NCBI RefSeq assembly: GCF_025486315.1
Contig: NZ_JAOOPY010000002.1
Coordinates: 361,501-425,500, forward strand
DNA from: Variovorax sp. N23
Lineage (GTDB): Bacteria; Pseudomonadota; Gammaproteobacteria; Burkholderiales; Burkholderiaceae_C
Reading direction: 5' to 3'
Length of the DNA: 64,000 nt
Made by a program: the position numbers and the translations under genes. The stretch's first letter is position 1, and every line of letters starts with the position of its first letter. The notes under the pieces are model-generated. The model was not told the DNA's origin and ran no database searches. It saw nothing but the letters and a program-made list of their open reading frames with translations. This document shows, in pieces, positions 37,590 through 60,130 of the stretch.

Positions 37590-37680
37590 CTTAAGAGTTT
37601 CGGTTCCAGGCTTTTATACACGGACGCAGAGTTGTCGCCAGGGCCATCCGGAAGCCTAGTTTTCAAGCGCTTGGTGGCGC

Positions 37681-44412: not shown

Positions 44413-44647
44413 GGCCGCGCAGAGCACCAATGGCAACCCCATGGGCAAGTAGTCGGTGAGCTTGACACCCAGTAGCGTCCGTCGACATCGCCAATCGGCC
44501 TACTCAAGCGAAATGCCGGAATTTCGCCTCTCGATCTTGCCTCTGACGCCACCGTAAAAACCTCTGTCCATGGCCCCGTTGGATCACGACTCCATGTGGG
44601 AGAATTGGCCAGACTTGGCAACCTATCGAATGCTGCATGCGCCCCTA

Positions 44648-44845
44648 ATGACTGCCACTGAATGTGAAATCCTGACGCTGGAAGAGGTCGCCGTGTACCT
44701 CAAAGCCGGGAAGCGGACGATCTACCGCCTCGCCCAAAAGGGCGAGATTCCGGCCTTCAAGCTTGGAGGCACCTGGCGGTTTCGCCGCTCTGAGCTGGAC
44801 GGTTGGATCGCTGAGAGCATCAACAACAAGAAGCCGGAGGCATAG
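44648..44845 (+). CDS. excisionase-family helix-turn-helix protein
   Basis: A 65-residue DNA-binding protein: LTLEEVAVYLKAGKRTIYRLAQKGEIPAFKLGG followed by WRFRRSELDGWI is the HTH_17/MerR-like excisionase domain. Start is uncertain; in-frame ATGs at 44570, 44594 and 44630 exist, and 44648 gives the usual family size. No Shine-Dalgarno sequence stands out. It ends 61 bp before the SNF2 helicase start, on the same strand, so it may be the first gene and regulator of the defence operon, or an excision factor for the element. Confidence 0.85.
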   Translation: MTATECEILTLEEVAVYLKAGKRTIYRLAQKGEIPAFKLGGTWRFRRSELDGWIAESINNKKPEA

Positions 44846-44906: not shown

Positions 44907-47780
44907 TTGATAACTCAGCAGCTTTTGACGCAGCATCAAAGCCAGTACTACGCATGGCTTTTGACGCGGCGCGCGGCAGGCGACTCAGTGGAGTCGCTCG
45001 CATCCACTCTTGTGGACTCGCAGGTTGACCTTAACCCCCACCAAGTCGAGGCGGCGCTCTTCGCCTGTAGCAATCCACTCTCGCGCGGCGTCATCTTGGC
45101 GGACGAGGTCGGGCTCGGAAAGACCATTGAGGCCGGTCTAGTCGTCTCGCAGCGTTGGGCCGAGCGCCGCCGCCGCATCCTGATCATCGTGCCCGCCAAC
45201 CTGCGCAAGCAATGGCACCAGGAACTGCAAGAAAAGTTCAATCTACAGGGCGTGCTCCTGGAGGCCAAGAGCTACAACACGATCCGCAAGCAGGGCCGCC
45301 AGAATCCGTTTCAAGGGGCAACTGGCCCCGTCATCTGCTCCTACCAGTTCGCAAAATCAAAAGCAGCGGACATCAAGGCTGTCGACTGGGACTTGGCCGT
45401 GCTCGACGAGGCGCATCGAATGCGCAATGTCTACAAGACCAGCAACGTGATCGCCAAAACGCTGAAGGAAGCGCTAGCCCACGTCCACTCCAAAGTTCTG
45501 CTTACCGCGACCCCGCTGCAAAACTCGCTGTTGGAGCTTTACGGCTTGGTCAGCATGATCGACGACCGCGTCTTTGGTGATATCGACAGCTTCCGCTCGC
45601 AATTCACGGCGCAGCCTAAAGAACAAGCATTCGCAGCCCTGCGAGCCCGCCTCGCCACAGTTTGTAAACGCACGCTGCGTCGCCAGGTTCAGCAGTACGT
45701 GCCGTACACGGCACGCAGGGCGATCGTGGAAGAATTTACCCCCTCGACTGAGGAAAGAGAGCTGTCAGGTCTTGTCGCCGACTACCTCCGCAGACCAAAT
45801 CTCAAGGCGCTGCCAGAAGGCCAACGGCAACTGATCTCGTTGGTGCTGTGGAAGCTGCTTGCCTCATCGACCCACGCCATCGCGGGCGCATTGGAGACCA
45901 TGGCCAAGCGGCTTCAGGGTGAACTTGACGAGTCATCCGACATCCCCGACCTGGCGGAGGTGCTGGATGAGGACTATGAATCGCTAGACGAAACCGCTGA
46001 CGAGTGGGAAGGGCAAGAGGCCAGCGTCGCGTCGTCAGCCGCCAGCCAACGCGATGCAATCACCCAGGAAATCGCTGAACTGAGGCACTTCAAGGCACTG
46101 GCGACCAACATTCGTGAGAACGCAAAGGGCACCGCACTCCTGACCGCTTTGGACAAGGCATTCGCTGAGCTGGGGCGGCTCGGTGCAGCGAAGAAGGCCA
46201 TCATCTTCACTGAGTCCAAGCGCACGCAGGAATACTTGCTTTCTCTCCTGGCGGCCACGCCCTACGGTGAAGGCATCGTCTTGTTCAACGGCACCAACAG
46301 CGATGCTCGGGCCCGAGCCGTCTACGAGGATTGGATCAAGCGCCATGCCGGGACGGATCGCATTACTGGGTCCAAGACCGCTGACACCCGAGCCGCACTG
46401 GTCGAGCACTTCAAAGAGCGCGGCACAGTGATGATTGCGACCGAGGCGGGTGCCGAAGGCATCAACCTGCAGTTCTGCTCGCTGGTCATCAATTACGACC
46501 TGCCATGGAACCCGCAGCGTATCGAGCAGCGGATCGGACGCTGCCACCGCTATGGTCAACAGTTCGACGTGGTAGTAGTCAACTTCGTAGACCGCAGCAA
46601 CGAAGCTGATGCCAGGGTCTACGAACTCCTAGATCAAAAATTCCAATTGTTTGAAGGCGTATTTGGTGCAAGCGACGAGGTGCTTGGGGCCATCGGCTCC
46701 GGCGTGGATTTTGAGCGTCGCATCGCAGACATCTACCAGAACTGCCGCGACCACGAGGCAATCAAAACCAGCTTCGAGCAGTTGCAAAGAGATCTGTCTG
46801 GCGAGATCAGCGAGGCCATGGTCAAGACGCGGCAAATCCTTCTGGAGAACTTCGACGAGGAGGTCCAGGACAAACTGCGAGTTAGAGCAGTAGACAGTCG
46901 CGCGGCGCGTAGCAAGTACGAACGCATGCTGCTCGAACTGACGCGGGCCGAGTTGGCTGACTGCGCACTGTTCGACGACGACGGCTTTGTCCTTCAGCGC
47001 CTGCCTTCCGCCACCTTGTATGAGGTTGACCTGGGCCGCTATGAGCTACCTCGCCGGTCTGGCGACACGCACCTCTATCGGATCGGCCATCCGCTAGCTG
47101 AGTGGGTGGCTAAGCAGGCCAAGAGCTATGAGCTTTCAGGTACACGGCTCGTCTTTGACTACAAGGCCTACGGCACCCAGATCAGCACGCTCAAACCGTA
47201 TCGAGGCAAGAGCGGCTGGCTGACCTTGAAGCTTGTGTCGGTTGAAGCCCTTGGGAACCAAGAGCAGCGCCTAGTGGTGGCGGCCATCACGTCAGACGGC
47301 CAAGTCCTGGCAGAGGACGACCCTGAAAAGCTGCTGCGGTTGCCGGCGCGGGCGCAGCCTGCCGAGCAGGGGAGCGTCGATGTTTCCCCGCTCAGTGAGG
47401 ACGTGGCGACACGGAAATCCGCCGTGCTGCGGGAGATCAACCAACGCAACCTGGGCTACTTTGAGCAGGAAGTCCAGAAGCTCGACGCGTGGGCTGATGA
47501 CTTGAAGCTGGGCATTGAGCAGGAAATCAAGGAGATCGACCGCCAGATCAAGGAAGTGCGCCGCACGGCAGCCAGTGCCCCCACGCTGGAAGAAAAACTC
47601 TCTTGGCAAAAACAGCAGCGCGAACTGGAAACCAAGCGGGGGAAACTGCGGCGTGAACTCTTCGCCCGGCAGGATGACGTCGAGTCCCAGCGTGACGATT
47701 TAATCAGTCAATTGGAAGTGCAACTTCAGCAGCGGGTCGAGGAACGCACCCTATTTACGGTTGAATGGGAGATGAATTGA
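44907..47780 (+). CDS. SNF2-family helicase with C-terminal coiled coil (defence operon gene 1)
   Basis: A 957-residue superfamily 2 ATPase. Walker A DEVGLGKT (66-73), DEAH (167-170), LTATPLQNS (199-207) and motif VI QRIGRCHRYGQ (about 541-551) are intact. The core resembles RapA and the DrmD helicase of class 1 DISARM. Residues about 845-950 are a charged coiled coil. No ATG fits; TTG 44907 lies 6 bp after an AGGGAGGA site at 44,892-44,900, so it is the proposed start. Its stop overlaps the next ATG as TGATG. It likely translocates on dsDNA for the system. DrmA, DrmB and DrmC are not present. Confidence 0.88.
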   Translation: MITQQLLTQHQSQYYAWLLTRRAAGDSVESLASTLVDSQVDLNPHQVEAALFACSNPLSRGVILADEVGLGKTIEAGLVVSQRWAERRRRILIIVPANLRKQWHQELQEKFNLQGVLLEAKSYNTIRKQGRQNPFQGATGPVICSYQFAKSKAADIKAVDWDLAVLDEAHRMRNVYKTSNVIAKTLKEALAHVHSKVLLTATPLQNSLLELYGLVSMIDDRVFGDIDSFRSQFTAQPKEQAFAALRARLATVCKRTLRRQVQQYVPYTARRAIVEEFTPSTEERELSGLVADYLRRPNLKALPEGQRQLISLVLWKLLASSTHAIAGALETMAKRLQGELDESSDIPDLAEVLDEDYESLDETADEWEGQEASVASSAASQRDAITQEIAELRHFKALATNIRENAKGTALLTALDKAFAELGRLGAAKKAIIFTESKRTQEYLLSLLAATPYGEGIVLFNGTNSDARARAVYEDWIKRHAGTDRITGSKTADTRAALVEHFKERGTVMIATEAGAEGINLQFCSLVINYDLPWNPQRIEQRIGRCHRYGQQFDVVVVNFVDRSNEADARVYELLDQKFQLFEGVFGASDEVLGAIGSGVDFERRIADIYQNCRDHEAIKTSFEQLQRDLSGEISEAMVKTRQILLENFDEEVQDKLRVRAVDSRAARSKYERMLLELTRAELADCALFDDDGFVLQRLPSATLYEVDLGRYELPRRSGDTHLYRIGHPLAEWVAKQAKSYELSGTRLVFDYKAYGTQISTLKPYRGKSGWLTLKLVSVEALGNQEQRLVVAAITSDGQVLAEDDPEKLLRLPARAQPAEQGSVDVSPLSEDVATRKSAVLREINQRNLGYFEQEVQKLDAWADDLKLGIEQEIKEIDRQIKEVRRTAASAPTLEEKLSWQKQQRELETKRGKLRRELFARQDDVESQRDDLISQLEVQLQQRVEERTLFTVEWEMN

Positions 47781-50700
47781 TGACTACTAAGAGAGAGATT
47801 TCGCGTGGAGCAGTCTGGAACCAGTGGGATCTGCATATTCATACACCTGCATCCTTCCACTGGGCCGGCCAAAGATTCGAGGGCGATATGTCGTCGCCTG
47901 AGAATCGTGCATTGATAGATCAAATGATTGAGGCCCTGAATGCAGCCGAACCTGCAGTCTTCGCTATCATGGACTATTGGACATTTGACGGATGGTTGGC
48001 TCTAAAACAACGACTCACGGAAAAGGATGCTCCTGTACTTACTAAGACAGTCTTCCCCGGTATCGAACTGCGTCTGTCCGCTCCTACGAGCAAGCGGCTG
48101 AACGCGCATGTCGTCTTCTCGGATACGACACCTGATCATCATTTGAAAGAGTTCCTTACTGATCTGAAGCTCGAACGTACGGATAGATCGATCTCCAAGG
48201 AGGCACTGATTGATTTGGCTAGGTCTACTGCCACCGACATGCTCATCAAGAAGGGACACAAGAAGGCAGTCGTGGATAGTGATGCCTCTGATGCGCTCTT
48301 GGCTGGTTATAAACTGGCCGAAGTAAAAGCTGAAAGCTATAAATCTGCTATCGCCAAGGTTCCGAACGGATTGGCAGTTGGCTTCATGCCGTTCGACACG
48401 AGTGACGGCCTGACGGAAGTGAAGTGGGAAGAACACTACGCCTACTTCCTCGGCCTACTAGAATCTTCTCCAATCTTTGAGTCAAGGAATGCCGATCTAC
48501 GAACAGCATTTCTGTGCGAGGAAACGTCGAAGAACAAGAGTTGGATTGGCAACTTCAAACATGGTCTCAAGAACATCCCCAGGCTAGTCGTTTCCGGCAG
48601 TGACGCGCACTGCTTCGTCGGTGTGACCGGCGATAACGACCGCCGCGGGTACGGGGATTTTCCATCAGGAAAAAGGACCTGGATCAAGGCTGACTTTACT
48701 TTCCAAGGACTGAAGCAGGCAATTCTGGAGCCAGCGAAGCGATCATTTATTGGCGAAAAGCCGCCGAAACTTCACGCGGTGGAGGCGAGCAAGACCCACT
48801 TCATCGAGTCGATCGAAGTCGCTAAGACCGGCACCAAAGCTGGCATCGGCAACTGGCTGGACGGCTGCGATCTGCCGCTCAATCCTGACCTTGTAGCCAT
48901 CATTGGCAACAAAGGCAGTGGAAAGAGCGCCTTAGCCGATGTCATCGCAACCCTCGGACACTCACGCCAGGCAAAGCACTTCAGCTTTCTTAAGCGTGAC
49001 CGCTTTCTGGGCAAGAGCGGGGATCCCGCTCGTCATTTCACAGGCACGCTGACTTGGCGCGACGAAAGTACCGAGGCCCGAACGCTAGAGATTCTTCCAA
49101 CAGATGAAAAGCAAGAACTAGTCCGCTACATCCCTCAGAACTACTTCGAGGAGCTTTGTAACGACCACGTCTCTGGCAAGTCAGACGCCTTTGAGAAGGA
49201 ACTGCGGGCGGTCATCTTCTCGCACACCAGCGAGGAGATGCGTCTCGGCGCTCTCGACTTCGATCAGCTCACTGAGCAGCAGGAACAAGCGCTGAGAAAC
49301 CGACTTGGGGAGTACCGCAAGGAACTGAAGACCCTCAATTCTTCCATCGCACGGATTGAAGATCAGCTGCAGCCGATTGAGGAAAAGAAGCTGACGGACC
49401 AGTTGCTGGTCAAGACGCGCGAGATCGAGGAGCACCAGAAGATCAAGCCGGCGGAGGTGCCCCCTCCGCCGGAAACGATGGAGCCCGAGCAGAAGCAGGC
49501 TGCAGAGGCGCTTGCAGCTTCGGCACAGAAGATCGAAACCGCTACCAAGCGCACGCAGCAGATTCAGACAGAGGTCACGGCGATCGCCAAACAGCAGAAG
49601 GCTCTTGTCAATGCGAAAGAACAGCTGAGACTGCTGCAACGTTCCTTCGACCAAACCAAGCAGCTCATCGCGGAAGACCTCATCCTCGCGGGATTGAACT
49701 GGGCCGATGTCGCGAAGCTGGACATCAAGACCAACTTGCTAGATGAGCGGGAGTCAGCCCTCGCTGAGAAACAGACGACGCTGCAGACCGAAGCCAGCAC
49801 CTTGGCTGACGCCACCGTGATCCTCGAGGAAGAGAAGAAAACACACGCAATCAAGCTCAACGCCCGTCAGCAGCACTTTGAAACCTACCAACGCCAGCTC
49901 GCTGAGTGGGCCAAGAAGCTGGATACCCTGAACGGCACGCCGACGGATCCCGACACCAAGGTCGGTCTTGAGACCAGATTGGCCCAAATCAAGCAACTGC
50001 CTGCCAAACGTGCGGAGCTGCAGGAGGCACGAATGAGGCTGACCGCCGAGATTTTCGAGTCCTTGGACGCGCAGCGGAAGGCTCGGGAGGACCTGTTCAA
50101 GCCGGTACAAAATCTGATCAAGGCGAACGACCTGATCCGAGAAGACTACCGTCTGCAGTTTCAGGCAACCCTAGCGGCCTCAGCCGAGACGATCGCAGAA
50201 CTGCTGTTCGCGATGATCAAGCAGACCTCAGGCACACTGCGCGGGCAAGATGAAGCGCTGTTGACGGTCAAAAAACTCTTTGACGGCCACGACCTGAATA
50301 CAAAGGATGGCGCCCTAGCGTTCTCCAAGGCCTTGCACGAAACCGTCGAACAGGCAGCCAAGGCATCAGGCACGGAGGTCGGCATTGCAAACCTCCTAAA
50401 GAAGGAGCAGGTGGCCGTTTCGGTCTACGACTTGATTTTTGGGCTCGAGTTTCTTGAGCCACGGTATTCGCTTCTGTTCCAGGACACGCAGATTGAGCAG
50501 CTATCTCCTGGCCAGCGAGGCGCACTCCTATTGATCTTCTATCTGCTGGTGGATAACGGCAAGACGCCCATCATCTTGGACCAACCGGAAGAAAATCTGG
50601 ACAACGAAACAGTGTTCCGCCTCTTGGTTCCAGTCCTATCCGAGGCCAAAAAGAAGCGCCAGATCATTATGGTCACTCATAACCCGAACCTGGCAGTCGT

Positions 50701-50866
50701 CTGTGATGCAGAGCAGATTATCCACGCATCCTTTGACCGGGCGTCAAACTGCAGCATCAACTACGTTTCTGGCTCATTGGAGAACCCGATGCTGAACAGC
50801 GCGGTTGTGACCGTACTGGAAGGCACCAAGCCAGCATTCAACAATCGCTCTGGGAAATATCATTGA
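47780..50866 (+). CDS. PHP-domain plus SMC-like ATPase, TrlF/Ppl type (gene 2)
   Basis: A 1028-residue protein. The N-terminal PHP phosphoesterase domain begins WDLHIHTPAS (about 16-25) and runs to about residue 290, with SGSDAHCF. An SMC/Rad50-like ATPase follows: Walker A GNKGSGKS (376-383), a long coiled coil (about 490-770), signature LSPGQRG (908-914), and Walker B PIILDQPEENLDN (930-942) with VTHNPNL after it. This layout matches the stand-alone Ppl defence protein and the TrlF family. ATG 47780 has GGGAGA 8 bp upstream. GC is clearly lower in the PHP half than in the ATPase half. Probably a nucleic-acid phosphatase or nuclease controlled by an ATPase. Confidence 0.88.
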   Translation: MTTKREISRGAVWNQWDLHIHTPASFHWAGQRFEGDMSSPENRALIDQMIEALNAAEPAVFAIMDYWTFDGWLALKQRLTEKDAPVLTKTVFPGIELRLSAPTSKRLNAHVVFSDTTPDHHLKEFLTDLKLERTDRSISKEALIDLARSTATDMLIKKGHKKAVVDSDASDALLAGYKLAEVKAESYKSAIAKVPNGLAVGFMPFDTSDGLTEVKWEEHYAYFLGLLESSPIFESRNADLRTAFLCEETSKNKSWIGNFKHGLKNIPRLVVSGSDAHCFVGVTGDNDRRGYGDFPSGKRTWIKADFTFQGLKQAILEPAKRSFIGEKPPKLHAVEASKTHFIESIEVAKTGTKAGIGNWLDGCDLPLNPDLVAIIGNKGSGKSALADVIATLGHSRQAKHFSFLKRDRFLGKSGDPARHFTGTLTWRDESTEARTLEILPTDEKQELVRYIPQNYFEELCNDHVSGKSDAFEKELRAVIFSHTSEEMRLGALDFDQLTEQQEQALRNRLGEYRKELKTLNSSIARIEDQLQPIEEKKLTDQLLVKTREIEEHQKIKPAEVPPPPETMEPEQKQAAEALAASAQKIETATKRTQQIQTEVTAIAKQQKALVNAKEQLRLLQRSFDQTKQLIAEDLILAGLNWADVAKLDIKTNLLDERESALAEKQTTLQTEASTLADATVILEEEKKTHAIKLNARQQHFETYQRQLAEWAKKLDTLNGTPTDPDTKVGLETRLAQIKQLPAKRAELQEARMRLTAEIFESLDAQRKAREDLFKPVQNLIKANDLIREDYRLQFQATLAASAETIAELLFAMIKQTSGTLRGQDEALLTVKKLFDGHDLNTKDGALAFSKALHETVEQAAKASGTEVGIANLLKKEQVAVSVYDLIFGLEFLEPRYSLLFQDTQIEQLSPGQRGALLLIFYLLVDNGKTPIILDQPEENLDNETVFRLLVPVLSEAKKKRQIIMVTHNPNLAVVCDAEQIIHASFDRASNCSINYVSGSLENPMLNSAVVTVLEGTKPAFNNRSGKYH

Positions 50867-50867
50867 C

Positions 50868-51002
50868 ATGCCGTTCTTTGAGCCTACCTATATTTCCATG
50901 TTGAGTACTGGTAGCGAGGGTGCGCATTGCGTCTTCGCCCACTCGCTCGATGCAAGCGAGCAAGTAGATGAGCCGCACTTTTCAACGTTGAGTGAGCATT
51001 GA
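50868..51002 (+). CDS. possible 44-residue peptide between genes 2 and 3
   Basis: An open frame beginning one base after the TrlF-like stop (MPFFEPTYISMLSTGSEGAH..., ending HFSTLSEH) and closing 5 bp before the AIPR start. It fills the only gap in the front part of the operon. It contains an inverted repeat (CTCGCT / AGCGAG) at about 50,943-50,960. The Shine-Dalgarno site is poor (GGGA about 13 bp upstream). It could be a real small protein, a coupling leader, or decayed sequence. Confidence 0.35.
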   Translation: MPFFEPTYISMLSTGSEGAHCVFAHSLDASEQVDEPHFSTLSEH

Positions 51003-51006
51003 CTTG

Positions 51007-52773
51007 ATGGCAACAGTGCCAACTCGCCCGCTTGAACTTGACCTGCTGTGCCAGAAGCTGGACGCCGACTACGCAGCACTCATCACCGGAACGGGCACAA
51101 GCCTGGAGTCTCGACGCAGCAACTTCCTGTCCAAGGCCATTGCAGCGTTCGTATTGCATGAGGCCGCAGGTGCGAGCCTGGGAGAGTCCGTCGCAGCGAG
51201 CATCGATGGCGGCTTGGATCACGGCATTGATTCGGTGTTCGTGGCCAATGATCAGACGATCTGGCTCGTTCAATCGAAGCACAAGGAGTCCGGTTCCGGC
51301 GAGCCTGAGCTTGGTGACGTGTCCAAATTCCGCGACGGCGTGACCGATCTCATCCGAGGTCGCTGGGAACGCTTTAACAGCGCGCTCCAAACACGCCGTG
51401 CTGCAATCACTGATGCCCTGAATAGCGGAATCTGCAAGGTCAAGGTCGTCCTCGCTTACTCCGGGACGGCTGTATCCGATGATCGGCGGGACATCTTTTC
51501 CGACATGGAGCGTGCGTTCAATGGTACGAATCCCGGTTTTCTGCGCTGCCATGCCTATGGGCTCACCACCCTTCACGACCTCCACTTGGACGGCATCTCT
51601 GCCCAAGCCATTGAGGCTGACATCGAGCTGAAGGACTTCGGGCACACCCAGGAACCCTACAGGGCGTTCTACGGTCGCATGGACGCTAAGCGGCTTGCAG
51701 AGTTGTGGGTCGAACACGAAGACCGCTTGGTTGACCGCAACATCCGGCGCTTCAAGGGAACCACGACCGTCAACACTGGTTTGACGGAAACCTTGCAGCA
51801 GGAGGCGCAGCACTTCTTCTACTTCAACAACGGTGTCACTTTTCTCTGCGAGGCGATCAATGAACAGCATCCCCGCGATCCTCATCGGGAATCAGGACGA
51901 TTTCGTGTTCGAGGGTTGTCCATCATCAACGGCGCTCAAACCGTTGGTGCCATAGCCAAAGAGCCCATCGCTTACTACGACGCCAATCCGGCCATGGTCA
52001 TGGCGACCTTCGTGTGCCTGGACAACGCGCCCGACGGTTTCGGCGACCGTGTGACTCAATCCCGCAACCGGCAGAACGCAGTGGACCTGGAAGACTTCGC
52101 CGCGCTGGATGAGCGGCAGGCCATGTGGCAGCAGACCCTGCGGATGGCAGGCATCGAATACATCGTCAAGCATGGTCAGGATGACCCTCCGCCTTCGCCG
52201 ACCACATTCAGTGCCAGAGAGCTGGCGCCGTACCTGGCTTGCACGGTCACCACGAGCGATTGGCAGGACTACCTCGTCGCGGCCAAGTCCGACAAGAAGA
52301 AGCTCTTCGGTCGGGAAGGGCTTGTGCCTGCAACCGATCCGTTACGCCAGTCCTACGAGCGCCTGTTTGCCGACTCGCTGACGTCCAAACAAATGTGGCG
52401 TATCGCCCAGGTCGGTCGCACGGTCGTTGGCAAGGTTCGGGATCGCGCAAGTGCGGAAGCCGACCCTATCGGGTTGCCACATGGCACGCTGCCCGCCAAA
52501 GAAATTCTCAGCCAAGGCGCGTGGATGATTCTGCATGTTGTGTTCATCAGGCTGCCGCTGCACAACGGCCCTGAGCTGAACCTCACCGCAGATCAGTTGA
52601 CGGCGCTGTCTCGCGAGATTGATCTGGTAGCAGATCGCTTGGTCACCGTCGTTCAGGCCGTTCAATGGAACAAGCAGGCGCGCAGCGTCTTTGAAAACAA
52701 AACGGACTGTCGATCCGTGAAAGGCCGCTTGATGGCGGCCTTGGCGCAACAAAACCAGGGAGGAGATCAATAG
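51007..52773 (+). CDS. AIPR-family protein with N-terminal PD-(D/E)XK-like motif (gene 3)
   Basis: A 588-residue protein. The AIPR (abortive infection phage resistance) core is recognised by FFYFNNGVTFLCE (about 270-282) and GLSIINGAQTVGA (303-315). The N-terminal domain has HGIDSVFVANDQTIWLVQSKHK, a restriction-endonuclease-like D75...Q89-S-K91 arrangement. Such proteins occur in defence loci including the Mza system. ATG 51007 is preferred over a GTG at 50992. Its TAG stop shares a base with the GTG start of gene 4, so the two are coupled. Probably a nuclease or regulator; the target is unknown. Confidence 0.87.
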   Translation: MATVPTRPLELDLLCQKLDADYAALITGTGTSLESRRSNFLSKAIAAFVLHEAAGASLGESVAASIDGGLDHGIDSVFVANDQTIWLVQSKHKESGSGEPELGDVSKFRDGVTDLIRGRWERFNSALQTRRAAITDALNSGICKVKVVLAYSGTAVSDDRRDIFSDMERAFNGTNPGFLRCHAYGLTTLHDLHLDGISAQAIEADIELKDFGHTQEPYRAFYGRMDAKRLAELWVEHEDRLVDRNIRRFKGTTTVNTGLTETLQQEAQHFFYFNNGVTFLCEAINEQHPRDPHRESGRFRVRGLSIINGAQTVGAIAKEPIAYYDANPAMVMATFVCLDNAPDGFGDRVTQSRNRQNAVDLEDFAALDERQAMWQQTLRMAGIEYIVKHGQDDPPPSPTTFSARELAPYLACTVTTSDWQDYLVAAKSDKKKLFGREGLVPATDPLRQSYERLFADSLTSKQMWRIAQVGRTVVGKVRDRASAEADPIGLPHGTLPAKEILSQGAWMILHVVFIRLPLHNGPELNLTADQLTALSREIDLVADRLVTVVQAVQWNKQARSVFENKTDCRSVKGRLMAALAQQNQGGDQ

Positions 52774-54773
52774 TGCAAGCGAACATCAAAGGTCTGGTGG
52801 ACCGGCTGGAGCTTTCTCAGGCCAAGGCCATGATGCCTCTCTACGAGGCCATCTCCAACGCCGTCGATGCCATCGAAGAGCACCAAGACGGCTTCAGCGA
52901 TCATACGATTCGCATCCGGTTGGTTGCCTCGAACGACCTTGCCCATCAGGGTGGAGACGGGACGCTGATCGTAGACGGCTTCGATGTGATCGACGATGGC
53001 GTTGGCTTCGACGACAAGAATCTGGCGTCCTTCAAGGAGGCTCACACCCTGTCGAAGGTGAAGCTGGGTGGTCGGGGTGTGGGCCGCTTCACCTTCCTAA
53101 AGGTCTTTTCGTCCGTCCGCATCCGCAGCGTCTTCAAGCGCGAGGATCAAGCCTTGTTGCGGGAGTTCGACTTCAGCATCGAAGATGAACTGAAGGGAGC
53201 AGACGTCACGTCCGAGATCGCGGAGTCATCTGGCACGCAGACCTCTCTGCGCGGCATGGACGAGAAGTTCCGAGCTGGGTGGCCTACCCAGCCGGAGACC
53301 ATCGCCGAGCGCGTCATCGCGCACTTCCTGATTCGGTTCGCGGCTCGCTCCTGCCCGCCCATGACGTTGGAGTCGCCGGGGCATGCGCCGATTGACCTGC
53401 ACGCCCTGTTTCAATCCACCGTGCTGGCACACATCGAAGAGCAATTCTTCGATGTCTCCGGCCACACTTTCGCCTTGCAGGCTTATCGCCACCGCGATGG
53501 CCGCTCGCGCCATGAGCTGAACTTGTGCGCCAACGGGCGTGAAGTCACCACCACCAAGCTGCGAGACCTGTTGCCAGAACTCCCTGAGAAGTTTCTGGAT
53601 GACGAGCAGGCACCGTACACCCTGATCGTGTTGGTCACAGGGGAGTACCTGGATGACCACGCCAACCAGGAACGGACGCGCATCGCCTTCCAAAGTGACG
53701 AAGAGCCCGAACTGGAGCAGACGCTTGTTTCTCGCCGAGCGTTGAACCAAGGCATTGCCGGTGCATTGCGTCCACTTCTCACAAGTGACTTGATGTCCAC
53801 GAACGAGGAAAAGCGCGCCCAGATTGAGAAGTTCGTGGAGCAAGCCCCGGAGTACAGAGCGCTCACCCATCCTCGCTACAAAGAGGTGATCGAGCAGATG
53901 ATTCAGCCCGGCCTGTCACAAGACAAGCTTGATGAGGCGTTGCTCCACGTAAAGCGAATCGTCGAGGATGACGTTCGCAAAGAGGCCAAACACGTCGCCG
54001 CGTTGTTTGAGACTGAGACGTTCGAGCAGTACCAAGAGAAATTCAAGGAAATTGCCGAGAAGGCCAACGAGATCGGTAAGGCACAGCTCGCTGCATACAT
54101 CGCGCACCGTCGCACGATTCTCGACCTGGTGAACAACAGCCTCAAGAAGAAGCGCACCGACGACAAGTACCCGCTCGAAAGGGTCTTGCACAAAATGATC
54201 TTCCCCATGGGTACAACCTCGAAGGATATCTTCTTCGAGCAGCAGAACCTTTGGGTCATTGACGAGCGGCTGTGCTATCACACGCTGCTCACCTCCGACA
54301 AGAAGCTGAAGAGCGTCGCCGGGCTCGGCGACACCTCGGGTCGCGAGCCAGACATCTTTGCCTTCTTCTACGACACGCCCATCGGTGTCGCCGAGGCCGA
54401 CAACCTGCCTGGCGGAGGTGTAGTCATCATCGAATTCAAGCGACCCGGCCGAGACAATTACGACAAAGACCCTGCCGACCAGATCATCCAACGGTTTCGA
54501 GAAATCGCAGAGGGCGGAGTCACAGATGTTGACGGCCGTCAGATCAACCCGACGAATCTGCGGTACACCGGCTATCTCATTGCCGACCTAATGCCATCTT
54601 TGCATCGGCAAGTATTCGGCCGCTACCACCGCACTGCCGATAACGAGGGGTACTTTTCCCCCTTGGCGACCGGCAACGGATATATAGAAATCCTCTCCTA
54701 TGACAAACTTATCAAGGATGCCAATCGTCGTAACCGCATCCTGTTTGACAAGCTTGGTCTGCACAAGAACTAA
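52773..54773 (+). CDS. GHKL ATPase with C-terminal PD-(D/E)XK-like domain (gene 4)
   Basis: A 666-residue protein. The Bergerat-fold ATP site is clear: N-box EAISNAVDA (25-33), G1 DDGVGF (74-79), and G2 GGRGVGRF (99-106). A helical linker follows, and from about residue 520 a nuclease-like segment with REPDIFAFF (Asp527) and VVIIEFKRP (Glu554, Lys556) fits the PD-(D/E)XK pattern. This combination resembles a MutL- or MORC-like clamp carrying its own nuclease. GTG start at 52773 overlaps the previous stop by one base. DNA-clamp or sensor role is inferred. Confidence 0.85.
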   Translation: MQANIKGLVDRLELSQAKAMMPLYEAISNAVDAIEEHQDGFSDHTIRIRLVASNDLAHQGGDGTLIVDGFDVIDDGVGFDDKNLASFKEAHTLSKVKLGGRGVGRFTFLKVFSSVRIRSVFKREDQALLREFDFSIEDELKGADVTSEIAESSGTQTSLRGMDEKFRAGWPTQPETIAERVIAHFLIRFAARSCPPMTLESPGHAPIDLHALFQSTVLAHIEEQFFDVSGHTFALQAYRHRDGRSRHELNLCANGREVTTTKLRDLLPELPEKFLDDEQAPYTLIVLVTGEYLDDHANQERTRIAFQSDEEPELEQTLVSRRALNQGIAGALRPLLTSDLMSTNEEKRAQIEKFVEQAPEYRALTHPRYKEVIEQMIQPGLSQDKLDEALLHVKRIVEDDVRKEAKHVAALFETETFEQYQEKFKEIAEKANEIGKAQLAAYIAHRRTILDLVNNSLKKKRTDDKYPLERVLHKMIFPMGTTSKDIFFEQQNLWVIDERLCYHTLLTSDKKLKSVAGLGDTSGREPDIFAFFYDTPIGVAEADNLPGGGVVIIEFKRPGRDNYDKDPADQIIQRFREIAEGGVTDVDGRQINPTNLRYTGYLIADLMPSLHRQVFGRYHRTADNEGYFSPLATGNGYIEILSYDKLIKDANRRNRILFDKLGLHKN

Positions 54774-54786
54774 GGTGGCATGACTC

Positions 54787-56499
54787 ATGAGTAAACAAAA
54801 ACTAGAACTTACTTGGGTGGGGAAGGAAAAGCGCCCCAAGCTGGAACCGCGCATCCTGCAAGAAGTCCCAGCAAAGTCCTATCACGCCAAACACCGCGTT
54901 TCGGACGACGACAGCTTTGACAACCGACTGATTTTCGGTGACAACCTGCTGGCATTGAAGGCGCTGGAGCAGGAGTTTTCTGGCCAAGTTAAGTGCGTAT
55001 TTATTGACCCGCCTTACAACACCGGTAGCGCTTTCAAACAATATGACGACGGTGTGGAGCATTCAGTTTGGCTCGGTTTGATGCGAGATCGTCTGGAGAT
55101 TATCAAACGGCTGCTCACTGAAGATGGTTCGCTTTGGATCACCATTGACGACAACGAGGCGCATTATTTAAAGATTTTGTGCGATGAAGTGTTTGGTCGC
55201 GGTTGTTTCGTCACAGCGTTTATATGGAAAAAGGTTGATAGCCCGAACGATAACAAGGTGCCGATAACCCCGGATCACGAATACGTTCTTTGCTTCACAA
55301 AGACACCCGGTGCTCGCCCGTTCAGGCAGAAGTTTGACGACTCGATATTGGCCGCATACCGTAAGCCGGATGGGGAATCCGATAGGCCTTACCGTGACCG
55401 ACTTTTGAAGAAGAATGGAAAAAATAGCCTCCGCTCTGATCGTCCGTCGATGTTTTTTTCCTTGACCGATCCCGATGGCGCGGAAGTATGGCCCATTCAT
55501 GACGACGGCAGGGAGGCCTGCTGGGCGCTGGGCAAGAAGGCTGTCGATGAATTGATTCTCAAGAAGGAGCTTATCTGGAAGAAGCGGGAGAGTGGGTGGA
55601 TTCCATACACACGGGAGTACGCGCCTGACAGCCCGTCGCGACCCTATCCGACAATATGGAATGATCTCGACACAACGCGACAAACGAAGGCACATCAAAA
55701 GACGCTATTCGGTGAAAACGTTTTCGCAACCCCTAAACCTGAAGACATGCTCAAGCGGGTTCTGGATATGGCTACCAGTCCCGGCGATATTGTTCTCGAC
55801 TCTTTCGCGGGGTCAGGAACGACGGGTGCTGTGGCTCAAAAGATGGGCCGACGTTGGATCATGGTCGAGCTTGGCGAGCATTGCCACACCCACGTCATTC
55901 CGCGTCTGAAAAAAGTCATCGACGGAGATGACAAGGGCGGCATCACCGAAATTGCTAACTGGCAAGGCGGCGGTGGCTTCCGCTACTACAAGCTCGCGCC
56001 CAGCCTCATCGTCACTGACCGCTGGGGAAATCCGGTCGTCAACCCGGAGTACAACGCTGCGCAATTGGCCGAAGCACTTGCTAAGTTGGAGGGCTTTTCC
56101 TACGCACCTTCCGAGGTGCAATGGTGGCAGCACGGCCATTCGAGCGAACGAGACTTCATCTACGTCACTACTCAAAACTTGTCTGCTGAGCAATTGCAGG
56201 CACTGTCAGATGAAGTGGGCGGCGAACAGAGCCTGCTCGTCTGCTGCGCAGCATTCCACGGCATCACAGCATCGAAGGCTTCCGAGCGCTGGCCGAATCT
56301 GACCCTGAAGAAGATTCCGAAGATGGTGCTGGCCCGCTGTGAATGGGGCCATGACGACTACAGCCTGAACGTAGCCAATCTGCCCATGGCGCAGGCCGAA
56401 GAGCCCGCGTCCATTGCTAGAGCCGTAGCACCCAAAACAAAAAAACCCGCCGCCGCGAGCACCGGGCAAGGCGGGCTGTTTAGGGAGGCCGAAGAATGA
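54787..56499 (+). CDS. type III restriction-modification DNA methyltransferase (Mod)
   Basis: A 570-residue N6-adenine (beta-class) methyltransferase. Catalytic DPPYNTG (74-80) precedes SAM-binding DSFAGSGTTG (338-347), with a TRD region between. It modifies host DNA so that the Res partner spares it. An AGGTGG site lies 8 bp before ATG 54787. The TRD region (about 55,000-55,780) is noticeably more AT-rich than the rest of the gene, as expected for exchanged specificity domains. A C-terminal extension after residue 380 (HWG-containing, Ala-rich tail KTKKPAAASTGQGG) is longer than in minimal Mods. Overlaps the Res gene as ATGA. Confidence 0.93.
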   Translation: MSKQKLELTWVGKEKRPKLEPRILQEVPAKSYHAKHRVSDDDSFDNRLIFGDNLLALKALEQEFSGQVKCVFIDPPYNTGSAFKQYDDGVEHSVWLGLMRDRLEIIKRLLTEDGSLWITIDDNEAHYLKILCDEVFGRGCFVTAFIWKKVDSPNDNKVPITPDHEYVLCFTKTPGARPFRQKFDDSILAAYRKPDGESDRPYRDRLLKKNGKNSLRSDRPSMFFSLTDPDGAEVWPIHDDGREACWALGKKAVDELILKKELIWKKRESGWIPYTREYAPDSPSRPYPTIWNDLDTTRQTKAHQKTLFGENVFATPKPEDMLKRVLDMATSPGDIVLDSFAGSGTTGAVAQKMGRRWIMVELGEHCHTHVIPRLKKVIDGDDKGGITEIANWQGGGGFRYYKLAPSLIVTDRWGNPVVNPEYNAAQLAEALAKLEGFSYAPSEVQWWQHGHSSERDFIYVTTQNLSAEQLQALSDEVGGEQSLLVCCAAFHGITASKASERWPNLTLKKIPKMVLARCEWGHDDYSLNVANLPMAQAEEPASIARAVAPKTKKPAAASTGQGGLFREAEE

Positions 56500-59228
56500 A
56501 TGCACGCGTCCAGAACGCCGTTACCGGCCGCCTGTCTCTGCGTCCGCCGCAGGCGGAGTCCTTGGCAAAGCTTGTGCGCGCTCTCGAAGCCGCGCCGAGC
56601 ATGCTCGGCCATGGCCAAGACGTACCCGCCATCCTCGCCACCTTGAAAGCTGAGTTCCCGACGCTGGAGGACTTTGAACGCGAGTTCCCCTCGCTGTGCT
56701 TTTCGCTAGCGACAGGCGTCGGCAAGACGCGTCTGATGGGCGCGTTCATCGCGTACCTGCACCTGGCGCATGGCATCAATAACTTCTTCGTGCTGGCACC
56801 GAACCTGACGATCTACAACAAGCTGATTGCCGACTTCACGCGCAACACGCCCAAGTACGTCTTCAAGGGGGTCGCCGAATTTGCCCAGCAACCGCCCTTG
56901 ATCATCACAGGCGACAACTATGACCAGACGGGCACTGTGGTTCAAGACCAGACCATGGGCTTTGCGCATGACGTGCGCATCAACATCTTCAACATCTCCA
57001 AGATCAACTCCGAGGTTCGCGGTGGCAAAGAGCCTCGTATCAAGCGGATGAAGGAGGTGCTGGGGGACAGCTACTTCAACCACCTGGCCGGCTTGGACGA
57101 TCTCGTGCTGCTGATGGACGAGTCGCACCGCTACCGCGCCAGTGCTGGGGTACGCTCCATCAATGAGCTGAAGCCGCTGTTTGGCCTTGAGGTGACGGCC
57201 ACGCCGTTTGTGGAATCCACGCGTGGTCCCGTGCCCTTCAAGAACGTGGTCATGGACTACCCACTGGCCCGGGCGATGGAAGACGGCTTCGTCAAAGAGC
57301 CTGCGGCTGTGACTCAGCGCAACTTCGACGCCAAGGCCCACTCGGCGGAAGAGATCGAAAAAATCAAGCTGGAGGATGGCGTCCGCCTGCACGAAACAAC
57401 CAAGGTCGAGCTGCTGACTTATGCCCGAGAGAACGGCGTGAAGGTGGTCAAGCCTTTCATGCTCGTGATCGCGCGGGATACCACGCACGCCTCACAGCTC
57501 AAGACACTGATCGAGTCTTCGGCCTTCTATGAGGGGCGCTACGCGGGCAAGGTGATCCAAGTGGACTCCAGCCGCACTGGGGCCGAAGAAGAGGAGATGA
57601 TCGCCAAGCTGCTTGCGGTGGAAAGCGTGGATGAGCCCACCGAGATCGTCATTCACGTCAACATGCTCAAAGAGGGCTGGGACGTGACGAACCTCTACAC
57701 CATTGTGCCGCTGCGGGCGGCCAACGCGCGCACGCTGGTCGAGCAGTCCATCGGTCGCGGCCTGCGTCTTCCCTATGGCAAACGCACAGGTGTCGCGGCG
57801 GTGGACCGACTGAATATCGTGGCGCACGACAAATTCCAAGAGATCATCGATGAGGCCAACCGTGGCGACTCGCCGATACGGCTGAAGCAGGTGATCCTTG
57901 AGGCCCCGAGTGCCGATGACAAGAAGGTGAGCGTGCAGGTTGGATCGGGTGCGATGACGCGCCTTGGGCTCACCGACGCGCCGACCATTGCCACCAATCC
58001 TGCCGGTGCGGGGGCAACACCGGCCGCTACGCCTGCGCCGGTGTTTACCACGGAGCGCGAGCGCCACGCCGCGCGTGTGGTAATGGACGTGATTGGAAAG
58101 TACGAGGTCAAGCGCGACCTCGTGCCGACCAGCAATGCGTTGCTCACCCCAGAGGTGCAGTCAGCCATCCTGGCTGAAGTGACTGAGCGGCTGAAGCCGG
58201 CCCAAGGTGACTTACTGGCTGGCACGGATGATGGAGCACCTGCACTTGATTTGTCGGCAGTGGTGTCCAAGACCACCGAGATTGTGGTCCAGCAAACCAT
58301 CGACATTCCGCGAATAGCGGTGGTACCCACGGGTGAGGTCACTACCGGCTTCCGACCGTTCAAGCTGGGCTCGTTGCCTAACTTCCAGCCGGGTCAAAGC
58401 GAGATCGTCGGTCAAGAGCTGCGCACGAACCATCAGTTCACGATGAGCCGGGAAGCTGGCATCAGGGAGCAGCGCTTCGAGGACTACATCGTCAAGAAGC
58501 TGATCGACTTTGACGACATCGACTACTTCACGCAGGCGGAACTGCTCTATGACTTGGCGAGCCAGGCCGTTGCCCACTACAAGGCGCAGAACTATTCCGA
58601 GAACGAACTGCACGAAGTGTTTGACACCTACGGCGCGGAGCTGGCCCGGCTGATTCGCGCCGAGATGATGGCCCACTTCTGGGAAGAGGCCACCGAGTAC
58701 GAGGTGCAGGTGAGCCGAGGCTTCACGGAACTTAAGCCGTGCAACTACACGGCTGTGGCCGGGCAAACGGCACATCACTACCGTGAGACCCTGACCGAGC
58801 TGGGCAAGATCAAGCAGATGCTGTTTGGTGGTTTCTCCCGCTGCCTGTACCCGCTGCAAAAATTTGACTCGGACACCGAGCGGCGCTTTGCGGTCATCCT
58901 GGAACGCGACGCCTTGAAATGGTTCAAGCCCGCCAAGGGGCAGTTCCAGATTTATTACAAGCTTGGCAGCGAACAGCCGGAGTACATCCCTGACTTCGTG
59001 GCAGAAACAGACTCGGCCATCTTCATGGTGGAAACAAAGGCGAGAGTCGATACGAATACTCAAGAGGTTCAGGCCAAGGCTACTGCCGCTTCTCGCTGGT
59101 GCAAGCACGCTTCGGATCACGCAGCAACTGTCGGCGCCGCGCCGTGGCGGTACTTACTAGTTCCGCACGATGAGATCGCCGAATCAAAGCGGCTCACTGA
59201 CTTTTTGCGCTTCCAAGTGAAGATCTGA
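56496..59228 (+). CDS. type III restriction endonuclease subunit (Res)
   Basis: A 910-residue SF2 helicase-nuclease. Walker A ATGVGKT (72-78), DESH box (208-211), and motif VI EQSIGRGLRLPYGKR are present. The C-terminal nuclease domain has YIPDFVAETDSAIFMVETKAR with Asp833 and Glu846-x-Lys848, a complete PD-(D/E)XK site. With Mod it would scan from unmodified asymmetric sites and cut DNA. Its length is typical for Res. It overlaps mod and is followed by the GIY-YIG gene after 2 bp. All catalytic motifs look intact, so the R-M pair is probably active. Confidence 0.93.
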   Translation: MNARVQNAVTGRLSLRPPQAESLAKLVRALEAAPSMLGHGQDVPAILATLKAEFPTLEDFEREFPSLCFSLATGVGKTRLMGAFIAYLHLAHGINNFFVLAPNLTIYNKLIADFTRNTPKYVFKGVAEFAQQPPLIITGDNYDQTGTVVQDQTMGFAHDVRINIFNISKINSEVRGGKEPRIKRMKEVLGDSYFNHLAGLDDLVLLMDESHRYRASAGVRSINELKPLFGLEVTATPFVESTRGPVPFKNVVMDYPLARAMEDGFVKEPAAVTQRNFDAKAHSAEEIEKIKLEDGVRLHETTKVELLTYARENGVKVVKPFMLVIARDTTHASQLKTLIESSAFYEGRYAGKVIQVDSSRTGAEEEEMIAKLLAVESVDEPTEIVIHVNMLKEGWDVTNLYTIVPLRAANARTLVEQSIGRGLRLPYGKRTGVAAVDRLNIVAHDKFQEIIDEANRGDSPIRLKQVILEAPSADDKKVSVQVGSGAMTRLGLTDAPTIATNPAGAGATPAATPAPVFTTERERHAARVVMDVIGKYEVKRDLVPTSNALLTPEVQSAILAEVTERLKPAQGDLLAGTDDGAPALDLSAVVSKTTEIVVQQTIDIPRIAVVPTGEVTTGFRPFKLGSLPNFQPGQSEIVGQELRTNHQFTMSREAGIREQRFEDYIVKKLIDFDDIDYFTQAELLYDLASQAVAHYKAQNYSENELHEVFDTYGAELARLIRAEMMAHFWEEATEYEVQVSRGFTELKPCNYTAVAGQTAHHYRETLTELGKIKQMLFGGFSRCLYPLQKFDSDTERRFAVILERDALKWFKPAKGQFQIYYKLGSEQPEYIPDFVAETDSAIFMVETKARVDTNTQEVQAKATAASRWCKHASDHAATVGAAPWRYLLVPHDEIAESKRLTDFLRFQVKI

Positions 59229-59230
59229 GT

Positions 59231-60130
59231 GTGATACCGATGCAACCTTTTTCCATCACACTTTTCGCAACCACTGGCGATCCCGAAGGCATCCGGCACC
59301 TAGACAAGTCGAACTGGTCCGGCTACGGAGTCGTCTTCAACAGGGAGCTGTTCCATCTGTTGAAACAGGAGCCGGGCTTCTTCCAAGCCGGTATCTACAT
59401 CCTCGTGGGCAATGCTGCTGAAGAGACAATTTACATTGGCGAAGCTGATCCTATCGGTGACCGCTTGAAGAATCACGTCTCAAACAAAGAGGGTTGGGTG
59501 TGGGGCGTCTACTTCTTCGATCGTAATCACAAGATCGGCAAGACGGAAGTTCAGTACCTGGAATCGGCATTGGTTGCACTGGCCAAAAAGCATGACCGGG
59601 CCATTCTTCTGAACAGGAACAACCCGACTGCGCCGACGATGGCCCCAGCAGCGAAGGCAACGGCCCAAGCATTTCTGGCTGATATGTTGTTGATTCTGCC
59701 GATGCTTGGAATCAATGCGTTCACACCGCTCAAGCAGGACGACCTTAGCGATCAGGTGCAGCCTGTCGGTTCAGAGATCGATAAGTTTGACACGATCGTT
59801 GTTCCGGCACGCGAGGAAGGGTTCAAGCAACGCTTCTTGAACGAGCACTGCTGGTTTGCCGTTCGGATCAATGTAAAGCAAATCTCGAAGCTGAAGTTCA
59901 TCGCGGCCTATCAGGTAGCCCCCGTTGCCGCCATCACGCACATCGCCGAGATCGACGCTATCGTTCCGTACAACGATACGGGTAAGTACATGATCAAGTT
60001 CAAAGGGTCGGCAACTCCGATCGTCCCGATCCCTCGCCCGGAGAGCAGCGAGGTAAATATGCAGTCGTCGCGTTATGCACTGCGGGAGAAGTTGCTGGCG
60101 GCGAAGAATCTGGATCAGGTGTGGGCGTGA
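59231..60130 (+). CDS. GIY-YIG nuclease-like protein (gene 7)
   Basis: A 299-residue protein with a GIY-YIG domain near residues 50-130: AGIYILVG, TIYIGEADPIGDRLKNH (YIG plus catalytic-type Arg78) and QYLESALV (Glu). The C-terminal half is unlike anything I recognise (FKQRFLNEHCWFAVRINVKQ, YMIKFKGSATPIVPI). This layout, GIY-YIG plus a C-terminal module, recalls DUF4357-type proteins beside R-M systems. GTG 59231 is used; ATG 59240 is the alternative. It ends the operon. The gap from here to MobC is non-coding. Confidence 0.85.
   Translation: MIPMQPFSITLFATTGDPEGIRHLDKSNWSGYGVVFNRELFHLLKQEPGFFQAGIYILVGNAAEETIYIGEADPIGDRLKNHVSNKEGWVWGVYFFDRNHKIGKTEVQYLESALVALAKKHDRAILLNRNNPTAPTMAPAAKATAQAFLADMLLILPMLGINAFTPLKQDDLSDQVQPVGSEIDKFDTIVVPAREEGFKQRFLNEHCWFAVRINVKQISKLKFIAAYQVAPVAAITHIAEIDAIVPYNDTGKYMIKFKGSATPIVPIPRPESSEVNMQSSRYALREKLLAAKNLDQVWA

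What the first reader, a model, noticed from the sequence alone, without database searches (positions are those of the whole stretch)
44907..60130. Seven-gene composite defence operon: SNF2 helicase, PHP-SMC ATPase, AIPR, GHKL-nuclease, type III Mod/Res, GIY-YIG
Seen: seven plus-strand genes with overlaps or gaps of a few bases (TGATG, TAGTG, ATGA; 13 bp between genes 4 and 5; 2 bp between 6 and 7). All ATP-binding, methyltransferase and nuclease motifs checked are intact. Known: SNF2 helicases (DISARM), PHP-ATPases (Ppl), AIPR and GHKL proteins (Mza), and type III R-M each act in phage defence. Inference: they form one system in which Mod/Res gives self/non-self discrimination, and the helicase, clamp-like GHKL protein and PHP-SMC ATPase add effector layers. 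DrmA/B/C, PglZ/BrxC and the Z1 protein are absent, so it is not DISARM, BREX or Mza. I cannot match the whole set to a named system.
Basis: partly seen in the sequence, partly recalled or inferred. Interest (0 to 1): 0.93.

Follow-up and report, generated by a model that had tools for sequence, protein, structure and literature searches.

The report
Restriction operon with swappable defence slots
This is an operon on a mobile DNA island whose outer helicase and restriction genes are found together in most related loci while much of what lies between them is exchanged for other genes, so it likely works as a DNA restriction system carrying plug-in backup defences against viruses rather than as one seven-part machine.

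Summary
They are not one fixed system. The stable part is SNF2 helicase - Mod - Res: SNF2 lies upstream of Res in 14 of 15 and 10 of 14 assessable Res-anchored loci. SNF2 and Res distances correlate (r 0.92, n = 31); the central Mod region does not follow them (r -0.07). Genes between SNF2 and Mod are exchanged: 24 loci not chosen by cargo show 20 different gene sets, or none, including DSR2, Kiwa, IetAS, GmrSD, TrlF alone and AIPR alone. Two operons with SNF2 and Res 92-93% identical in DNA carry KwaAB+GHKL or DSR2 from the SNF2 stop codon onward. So TrlF, AIPR, GHKL and probably GIY-YIG are embedded cargo, likely second-line effectors. Embedding is known in type I R-M, Hma and BREX; I found no description of this SNF2-type III platform in my searches, which could not reach the key preprint. 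New variant of a known kind; functions are inferred.

The parts
37828..37844 (+). Left end repeat of the mobile island: 17-bp copy of the tRNA-Met 3' end
   Evidence: Exact match to L091:3912-3928, where the tRNA-Met 3' end and an integrase gene lie
44570..44845 (+). HTH_17 (excisionase-type) small DNA-binding protein, possible operon regulator
   Evidence: Pfam PF12728 65.1 bits; matches upstream of SNF2 in L008, L010, L016
44907..47780 (+). Core 1: SNF2/RapA-type helicase, related to DrmD but below the DrmD cut-off
   Evidence: PADLOC DrmD 647.6 bits; NCBIfam DISARM_DrmD_b 655.8 bits against cut-off 950; Walker A and DEAH
47780..50866 (+). Slot A cargo: TrlF-family PHP-type protein with an SMC/ABC ATPase part
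   Evidence: NF045780 672.6 bits; HIHT, SDAH and GNKGSGKS motifs
50970..51006 (+). Decayed copy of the SNF2 3' end just before AIPR: likely scar of an older SNF2/AIPR junction
   Evidence: Alignment with the SNF2 tails of L008, L016 and L022 at the floor of 1000 shuffles (p 0.001); weaker or not significant with the other three tails
51007..52773 (+). Slot A cargo: AIPR protein with a D...QxK nuclease-like motif
   Evidence: PF10592 138.1 bits; D75, Q89, K91 invariant in 16 sequences
52773..54773 (+). Slot A cargo: GHKL ATPase with a C-terminal PD-(D/E)xK-like motif
   Evidence: Foldseek: GyrB/MutL/Hsp90 ATPase regions, best E 6.5e-11, on a model of mean pLDDT 59.7; E525, D527, E554, K556 invariant in 24 sequences
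54787..56499 (+). Core 2: Mod, type III-family adenine methyltransferase
   Evidence: PADLOC MTase_III 640.9 bits; PDB matches 6k0w_B and EcoP15I Mod 4zcf_A
55237..55686 (+). Exchangeable central region of Mod (residues about 151-300), predicted target recognition domain
   Evidence: 12-34% identity against 66-94% in the flanks in 8 of 9 loci compared; the ninth, L011, has 64-78%
56496..59228 (+). Core 3: Res, type III-family helicase-nuclease
   Evidence: PADLOC REase_III 680.5 bits; EcoP15I Res 4zcf_C; PD...ETK motif
59231..60130 (+). Tail gene: GIY-YIG protein, PADLOC candidate PDC-S14
   Evidence: 163.6 bits; an 88% match over 14% of it follows Res in L008, read as a remnant
60656..62478 (+). 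Mobilisation genes of the island: NikA-like protein (60656-61102) and relaxase (61099-62478)
   Evidence: PF21983 and PF03432

Best explanation
The operon is a type III-family restriction-modification core in which an SNF2 helicase gene is a co-inherited third member (SNF2-Mod-Res), with exchangeable modules (here TrlF, AIPR and GHKL) lodged between SNF2 and Mod, and it likely acts as a restriction engine that carries its own backup effectors. Shown here: gene order, exchange of modules and of the central part of Mod, and parallel divergence of SNF2 and Res. Inferred: Mod marks host DNA at an asymmetric site set by its exchangeable region; Mod-Res cuts DNA with unmarked sites; SNF2 helps this engine move on or clear DNA; the embedded proteins and GIY-YIG (predicted nucleases or nuclease-ATPases) act on their own as a second line when restriction is blocked or evaded; lying inside the operon gives them its expression and the mobility of its island.
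For: (1) Among Res-anchored loci that could be judged, SNF2 lies upstream on the same strand in 14 of 15 (order sample; 4 more cut by contig ends) and 10 of 14 (class sample; 6 more cut; one of the 10, L089, is decayed). (2) Distance correlations, n = 31: SNF2-Res 0.92; SNF2-Mod flanks 0.73; SNF2-Mod centre -0.07; Res-Mod centre -0.08. In 11 close loci GHKL-Res 0.17 (p 0.09), SNF2-Res 0.90. (3) 24 loci not chosen by cargo: 20 different gene sets in slot A, and none in 3 loci (unassigned genes are labelled by length, so sets that share a system can count apart, as with IetAS in L077 and L080). (4) Family models: DSR2 478.4 bits, KwaA 196.2, KwaB 478.6, HEC-06/GmrSD 777.3, IetA 356.1 and IetS 1202.9, PDC-S06 238.1; in the Mod|Res slot RhuM/PDC-S05 446.2 and YhcG/PDC-S02 529.6. 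14 of the 20 proteins I chose for PADLOC scanning score over 100 bits. (5) L022 and L035: SNF2 93.0% and Res 92.0% identical in DNA; similarity ends at the SNF2 stop and resumes in Mod; KwaAB+GHKL against DSR2 in slot A, RhuM against YhcG in slot B. (6) Scar of the SNF2 3' end before AIPR where TrlF is present. (7) Central Mod 12-34% identical against 66-94% flanks in 8 of 9 loci.
Against: No functional data. SNF2 was not found upstream of Res in 5 assessable loci (L046, L075, L082, L083, L090). SNF2 also lives without this Res: of 31 non-own SNF2 matches, 13 lie with it; of the other 18, one (L054, contig ends after Mod) has this Mod and 9 have a distant methylase (26-31%) downstream. AIPR distances do correlate with SNF2 and Res (0.66, 0.68) and GHKL weakly with SNF2 (0.25, p 0.04; n = 11), and AIPR+GHKL sit together in 9 of 12 GHKL-anchored loci that have SNF2 and Mod, 10 with the TrlF trio of L014, so that pair may be more than passing cargo. 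Distance correlations keep shared ancestry in and do not prove a complex. Some scanned cargo is not defence-like by model: DUF2130, AlbA-HATPase (24 bits at best), an unassigned 359-aa protein. Slot counts use a simple ORF caller (at least 80 aa, plus strand).
Confidence: 0.65

Rival explanations
1. One obligate seven-component defence system: Mod/Res discriminates and SNF2, TrlF, AIPR, GHKL and GIY-YIG are required effector layers.
For: Mostly tight same-strand organisation; the same front set next to mod-res in L014 and L030 (same contig as L034), and in L015 as far as its contig reaches; motifs intact.
Against: 1 of 24 Res/SNF2-anchored loci has the same set; TrlF, AIPR and GHKL each occur in the slot without the other two or without one of them; L008, whose SNF2+Res is 95% identical to the window's, lacks TrlF and has only a GIY-YIG remnant; GHKL also stands outside such operons.
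Confidence: 0.05
2. A modular but cooperating system: SNF2-Mod-Res is the sensor, and whichever embedded module is present is its direct effector, triggered by SNF2 or Res (a plug-in effector of one sensor).
For: The first cargo ORF lies within 30 bp of the SNF2 stop, overlaps included, in 24 of 33 loci with cargo; AIPR co-varies with SNF2 and Res (0.66 and 0.68).
Against: The cargo includes systems with triggers of their own (DSR2, Kiwa; recalled), and 3 of 24 loci have none; GHKL-Res correlation is not significant.
Confidence: 0.18
3. Neutral hitch-hiking: conserved flanks of SNF2-Mod-Res recombine easily and the cargo is there only for that reason, with no functional tie.
For: Conserved flanks with unlike middles are what homologous exchange would give; GHKL-Res correlation is not significant.
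Against: 14 of 20 cargo-position proteins chosen for scanning match PADLOC defence models above 100 bits; start and stop codons stay coupled at the SNF2 end in many loci.
Confidence: 0.12

Closest known systems
Type III restriction-modification (EcoP15I Mod/Res)
   Same: Adjacent mod and res; Mod matches EcoP15I Mod and 6k0w_B, Res matches EcoP15I Res; exchangeable central region in Mod.
   Different: An SNF2 helicase gene is a co-inherited third member, and other genes are lodged between SNF2, Mod and Res.
Defence systems embedded in type I R-M operons (DarTG2 between hsdS and hsdR; PrrC in EcoPrrI)
   Same: A second defence module lies inside an R-M operon (PMC12255303, passages; PMC12707154, passages; also PMC12629846, passages).
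   Different: Here the carrier is type III with SNF2 and has two internal slots plus a tail position.
Hma with Hma-embedded candidates (HEC); PADLOC 'guilt-by-embedding' candidates (PDC)
   Same: A helicase-methylase-ATPase operon with other defence genes embedded (passages); HEC-06 and PDC families recur here.
   Different: Hma has an m5C methylase and an ATPase (PMC8565338, passages), not type III Mod and Res. The preprint on embedded candidates is not held, so overlap with this platform could not be checked.
BREX and BREX-related (BR) systems with backup nuclease effectors
   Same: Snf2 helicase plus adenine MTase core with embedded nucleases, OLD and Schlafen-kinase modules (PMC12839542, section 29 and part 1 of section 35); an AlbA-HATPase protein of that make-up is cargo here too.
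   Different: BR systems have a DUF499 ATPase and BREX has PglZ/BrxC; neither is among the hits shown for the seven proteins.
DISARM class 1 (DrmD, DrmMI, DrmA-C; composition recalled)
   Same: The SNF2 protein is closest to DrmD.
   Different: Below the DrmD cut-offs; no DrmB or DrmC hit shown; Res in the operon instead of DrmA.
MORC/paraMORC GHKL proteins in R-M operons (Iyer 2008)
   Same: GHKL ATPases next to SFII helicases of type III or SNF2 type, methylases and AIPR (PMC2292703, passages).
   Different: That paper proposes a joint DNA-looping role; here the GHKL gene comes and goes relative to the core. Membership of the GHKL protein in a MORC family was not tested.

Membership tests
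Type III R-M | Type III Mod with DPPY and FxGxG motifs and an exchangeable recognition region | tested here: met
   MTase_III 640.9 bits; DPPYNT at 74, FAGSGTT at 340; central region 12-34% identity in 8 of 9 loci
Type III R-M | Res with SF2 helicase and PD-(D/E)xK nuclease motif, next to mod | tested here: met
   REase_III 680.5 bits; helicase motifs and PDF...ETK; Mod adjacent in 18 of 19 and 18 of 20 loci
Type III R-M | One-strand methylation and cleavage needing two inversely oriented sites | not testable with these tools
   Needs methylome and cleavage assay
DISARM | DrmA, DrmB and DrmC present | tested here: not met
   No DrmB or DrmC among the hits shown for the seven proteins; SNF2 hits a DrmA model at 134.5 bits against 647.6 for DrmD. 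The rest of the genome was not searched for them.
DISARM | SNF2 protein reaches the DrmD cut-off | tested here: not met
   655.8 against 950 and 261.9 against 610
Hma | HmaA helicase, m5C methylase HmaB, ATPase HmaC | tested here: not met
   HmaA 176.9 bits for SNF2, no HmaB or HmaC hit shown; the methylase is N6/N4 type, PF01555
BREX / BR | PglZ and BrxC, or DUF499 ATPase with DUF1156 MTase | tested here: not met
   No such hit among those shown for the seven proteins in Pfam, NCBIfam or PADLOC
Ppl | Protein 2 reaches the Ppl cut-off | tested here: not met
   97.4 against 1000; it is TrlF, 672.6 against 350
Embedded (HEC/PDC-type) defence | Separately occurring defence genes placed between the genes of another defence system | tested here: met

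The most novel reading that the evidence does not exclude
SNF2-Mod-Res is an unrecognised subclass of type III restriction in which the SNF2 helicase is an obligate third subunit working with Res, and the operon is a platform with an insertion point at the SNF2 stop codon, a second one between Mod and Res, and a swappable recognition domain, so that whole defence systems (Kiwa, DSR2, IetAS, TrlF, AIPR-GHKL) are loaded and unloaded as single updates. Unassigned genes found in these slots would then be new defence systems.
Probability: 0.45. Interest if true: 0.72.

Novelty: new variant of a known kind. Interest (0 to 1): 0.56.

Why it matters
If right, it turns a puzzling seven-gene operon into a general rule: a two-ended core (SNF2 ... 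Res) that is inherited together while much of what lies between its ends is exchanged. That gives a mining rule (read the slots to find new defence genes), a testable idea that type III restriction can have a third, SNF2, subunit, and a natural experiment, since operons with 92-93% identical SNF2 and Res genes carry different known defences.

Tried and rejected
One seven-part machine: rejected on slot exchange. DISARM, Hma, BREX/BR, Mza and Ppl as names: missing genes or cut-offs not reached. Close DNA copies in plasmids or E. coli: one 466-base match in a Deinococcus plasmid record, none in E. coli (megablast only). GHKL as marker of the operon: rejected, because plasmid relatives at 25-35% identity stand in other neighbourhoods (six of 55 records read). 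GHKL structure: modelled from 13 sequences, mean pLDDT 59.7, C-terminal part largely under 50, so only the ATPase region is used. A paper describing SNF2 with type III Mod/Res: none seen in the listings (8 of 10 searches used in all, with 38, 39 and 47); of ten papers I read passages, two sections in one case; most listed papers were seen as listings only. The tool says no bioRxiv preprints are held (PMC copies of some appear), and most subscription journals are missing. TrlF with phage as whole words: no paper. No test of label changes on the tree was run; cargo types are partly clustered on it. Odds: on checking, the four exclusive readings added to more than 1, so the main one went from 0.75 to 0.65 and the rivals were trimmed; the weak GHKL-SNF2 correlation, left out at first, is now told.
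Full report
What is there. Seven plus-strand ORFs run from 44907 to 60130. The motifs looked for are present. By comparison with operons that lack gene 2, gene 2 starts at 47780 (TGATG with the SNF2 stop) and gene 3 at 51007. A small HTH_17 gene precedes SNF2. Family models give: SNF2 helicase closest to DrmD but under its cut-offs; TrlF; AIPR; a GHKL protein without a named family; type III Mod; type III Res; GIY-YIG as PDC-S14. Mod and Res match the EcoP15I subunits in the PDB. The GHKL model matches GyrB, MutL and Hsp90 ATPase regions but is poor in its C-terminal part.

Where it sits. The operon lies on a low-GC island in a GC-rich chromosome. The island ends at a tRNA-Met with an integrase gene beside it, about 3.7 kb beyond the window (L091), and a 17-bp copy of the tRNA end lies at window 37828. 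That makes an element of about 30 kb with NikA-like and relaxase genes, RadC and a DUF5906 protein.

Sampling. Set one: 26 loci found through the GHKL protein in one-genome-per-species contigs. Set two: regions for the 19 non-own genomes with a Res match among 399 genomes of the order, plus 18 regions for SNF2 matches not lying with such a Res. Set three: 20 regions of 21 distinct non-own Res sites among 369 genomes of the class. A few genomes, the window's own among them, are in both samples. Set one is biased to contain GHKL, so cargo frequencies are taken from sets two and three.

The stable part. SNF2 lies upstream of Res on the same strand in 14 of 15 order loci and 10 of 14 class loci that could be judged; 4 and 6 more were cut by contig ends; five (L046, L075, L082, L083, L090) have no SNF2 in the 10.7 to 15.9 kb upstream that was fetched; one of the ten, L089, is a decayed copy. 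SNF2 and Res distances correlate at 0.92 over 31 loci, although about 1.7 to 10.5 kb lies between the two genes. Mod flanks correlate at 0.73 with both, the central Mod region at -0.07 and -0.08. Among 11 close loci with all genes, SNF2-Res is 0.90, AIPR-Res 0.68, SNF2-AIPR 0.66, SNF2-GHKL 0.25 (p 0.04), GHKL-Res 0.17 (p 0.09). The correlations retain shared ancestry; the contrast between genes is the point. The reverse link is weaker: of 31 non-own SNF2 matches, 13 lie with this Res family; of the other 18, one (L054) has this Mod and nine have a distant methylase of 26-31% identity downstream.

The exchanged parts. In 36 loci with SNF2 and Mod on one strand, the 24 not chosen by GHKL hold 20 different gene sets between them, and three have no plus-strand gene there (L048, L050, L088). 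Cargo: TrlF+AIPR+GHKL (window, L014, L034), AIPR+GHKL (nine of the twelve GHKL-anchored loci counted), TrlF alone (L039), AIPR alone (L054), AIPR with an SMC protein weakly like LmuB (L044, L078), KwaAB with GHKL (L022), KwaB (L023), DSR2 (L035, L041), GmrSD/HEC-06 (L047), PLD (L043), OLD with AlbA-HATPase (L045), PDC-S06 (L071), IetAS (L077, L080), others unassigned. As a rule one member of each family was scanned with family models and the rest were assigned to it by BLAST; IetA and IetS were scanned in both loci. Between Mod and Res lie RhuM/PDC-S05 or YhcG/PDC-S02 genes in part of the loci. After Res the window has GIY-YIG; L008 keeps what looks like a remnant; L010 and L016 have an AAA_21/OLD-like ATPase and a UvrD-like protein.

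Direct swaps. L022 (Azotobacter vinelandii CA) and L035 share 93.0% of SNF2 DNA up to the last base of the stop codon and 92.0% of Res. Between them L022 has KwaAB+GHKL and RhuM, L035 has DSR2 and YhcG, and the middle of Mod does not align while its ends are 82.7% and 88.1% identical. L039 and L041, whose SNF2 and Res are 76.4% and 80.8% identical, show the same with TrlF against IrrE+DSR2. Both pairs are sisters on the SNF2+Res tree. On that tree AIPR+GHKL stays within the window's wider clade and AIPR+SMC in one sister pair, so cargo also persists for some time. In the TrlF-bearing operons a decayed copy of the SNF2 3' end stands just before AIPR. For the window it reaches the floor of 1000 shuffles against three of six SNF2 tails (L008, L016, L022), p 0.003 and 0.016 against L010's and its own, and 0.23 against L014's; for L014, L030 and L015 only the L008 tail gives p of 0.002 or less, the others 0.01 to 0.95. 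I read it as a scar of TrlF insertion into an older SNF2/AIPR junction. A start codon overlaps the SNF2 stop by sequence pattern alone in 24 of 37 loci and in the window, though in some, such as L023, L073 and L077, the next called gene is further off; the first cargo ORF lies within 30 bp in 24 of 33.

Motif residues. Those tested were invariant in AIPR (16 sequences), TrlF (4), GHKL (24) and SNF2 (48); in Res the helicase residues in 50 of 50 and the PD...ExK residues in 47 of 50 (two gaps, one changed); in Mod the DPP in 42 of 42. That TrlF, AIPR, GHKL, Res and GIY-YIG are nucleases is a prediction; the names PHP, QxK, PD-(D/E)xK and GIY-YIG for the motifs are recalled, not taken from a call.

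Reading. The operon is a type III-family R-M engine with an SNF2 partner that carries embedded modules, likely second-line effectors. The first half rests on homology and parallel divergence, the second on exchange and on the identity of the cargo. What each module senses, and whether it depends on the engine, is inferred. Precedents: PrrC in a type IC locus, activated when restriction is inhibited (PMC12707154, passages); DarTG2 in a type I operon (PMC12255303, passages); Hma-embedded and other candidates found by 'guilt-by-embedding' (PMC12988326, PMC10855318, passages); backup effectors in BREX (PMC12839542, section 29 and part 1 of section 35). GHKL proteins beside SFII helicases and AIPR in R-M operons were noted in 2008 (PMC2292703, passages). 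SNF2 relatives at 34 to 50% identity also lie near other Res-type proteins with another endonuclease domain (L057, L060, L068), so the link between SNF2 and type III restriction is likely wider than this family.

Novelty. Embedding is known; this platform, with SNF2 and Res as co-inherited ends, I did not see in the listings, and the key preprint is not held. Hence a new variant of a known kind.

Noticed in passing
window 37828-37844 and L091:2506-3988: The operon's island is bounded by a 17-bp repeat of a tRNA-Met 3' end, with a phage-integrase-family gene next to the tRNA; about 30 kb in all.
   Followed up: yes
window 36000-37827: Low-GC DNA continues outside the left repeat, perhaps the remains of another element.
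   Followed up: no
L002-L007 (plasmids): Relatives of the GHKL protein at 25-35% identity stand beside DUF3800, Shedu, PIN, Abi or SIR2 genes; the window's own member has no PADLOC hit.
   Followed up: partly
L057, L060, L068, L061: SNF2 relatives at 34-50% identity near different Res-type or DEAD/ResIII proteins, some with long adenine methylases.
   Followed up: partly
L055, L065, L089: Broken or shortened copies of the SNF2 core in other genomes.
   Followed up: no
GHKL residues about 401-666, window against L008-L018: The C-terminal half falls into two classes (about 94-100% or about 58-88% identity to the window), as if exchanged separately from the ATPase half.
   Followed up: no
window 62588-63538, minus strand: DUF559/MTES_1575 endonuclease-like gene beside the relaxase.
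   Followed up: no
L083, L090: Mod-Res without SNF2 in the fetched DNA: L090 has IetS by model just upstream and a HEC-06 relative further off; L083 has KwaB and two genes of the same lengths as L080's IetA and IetS, not scanned.
   Followed up: no
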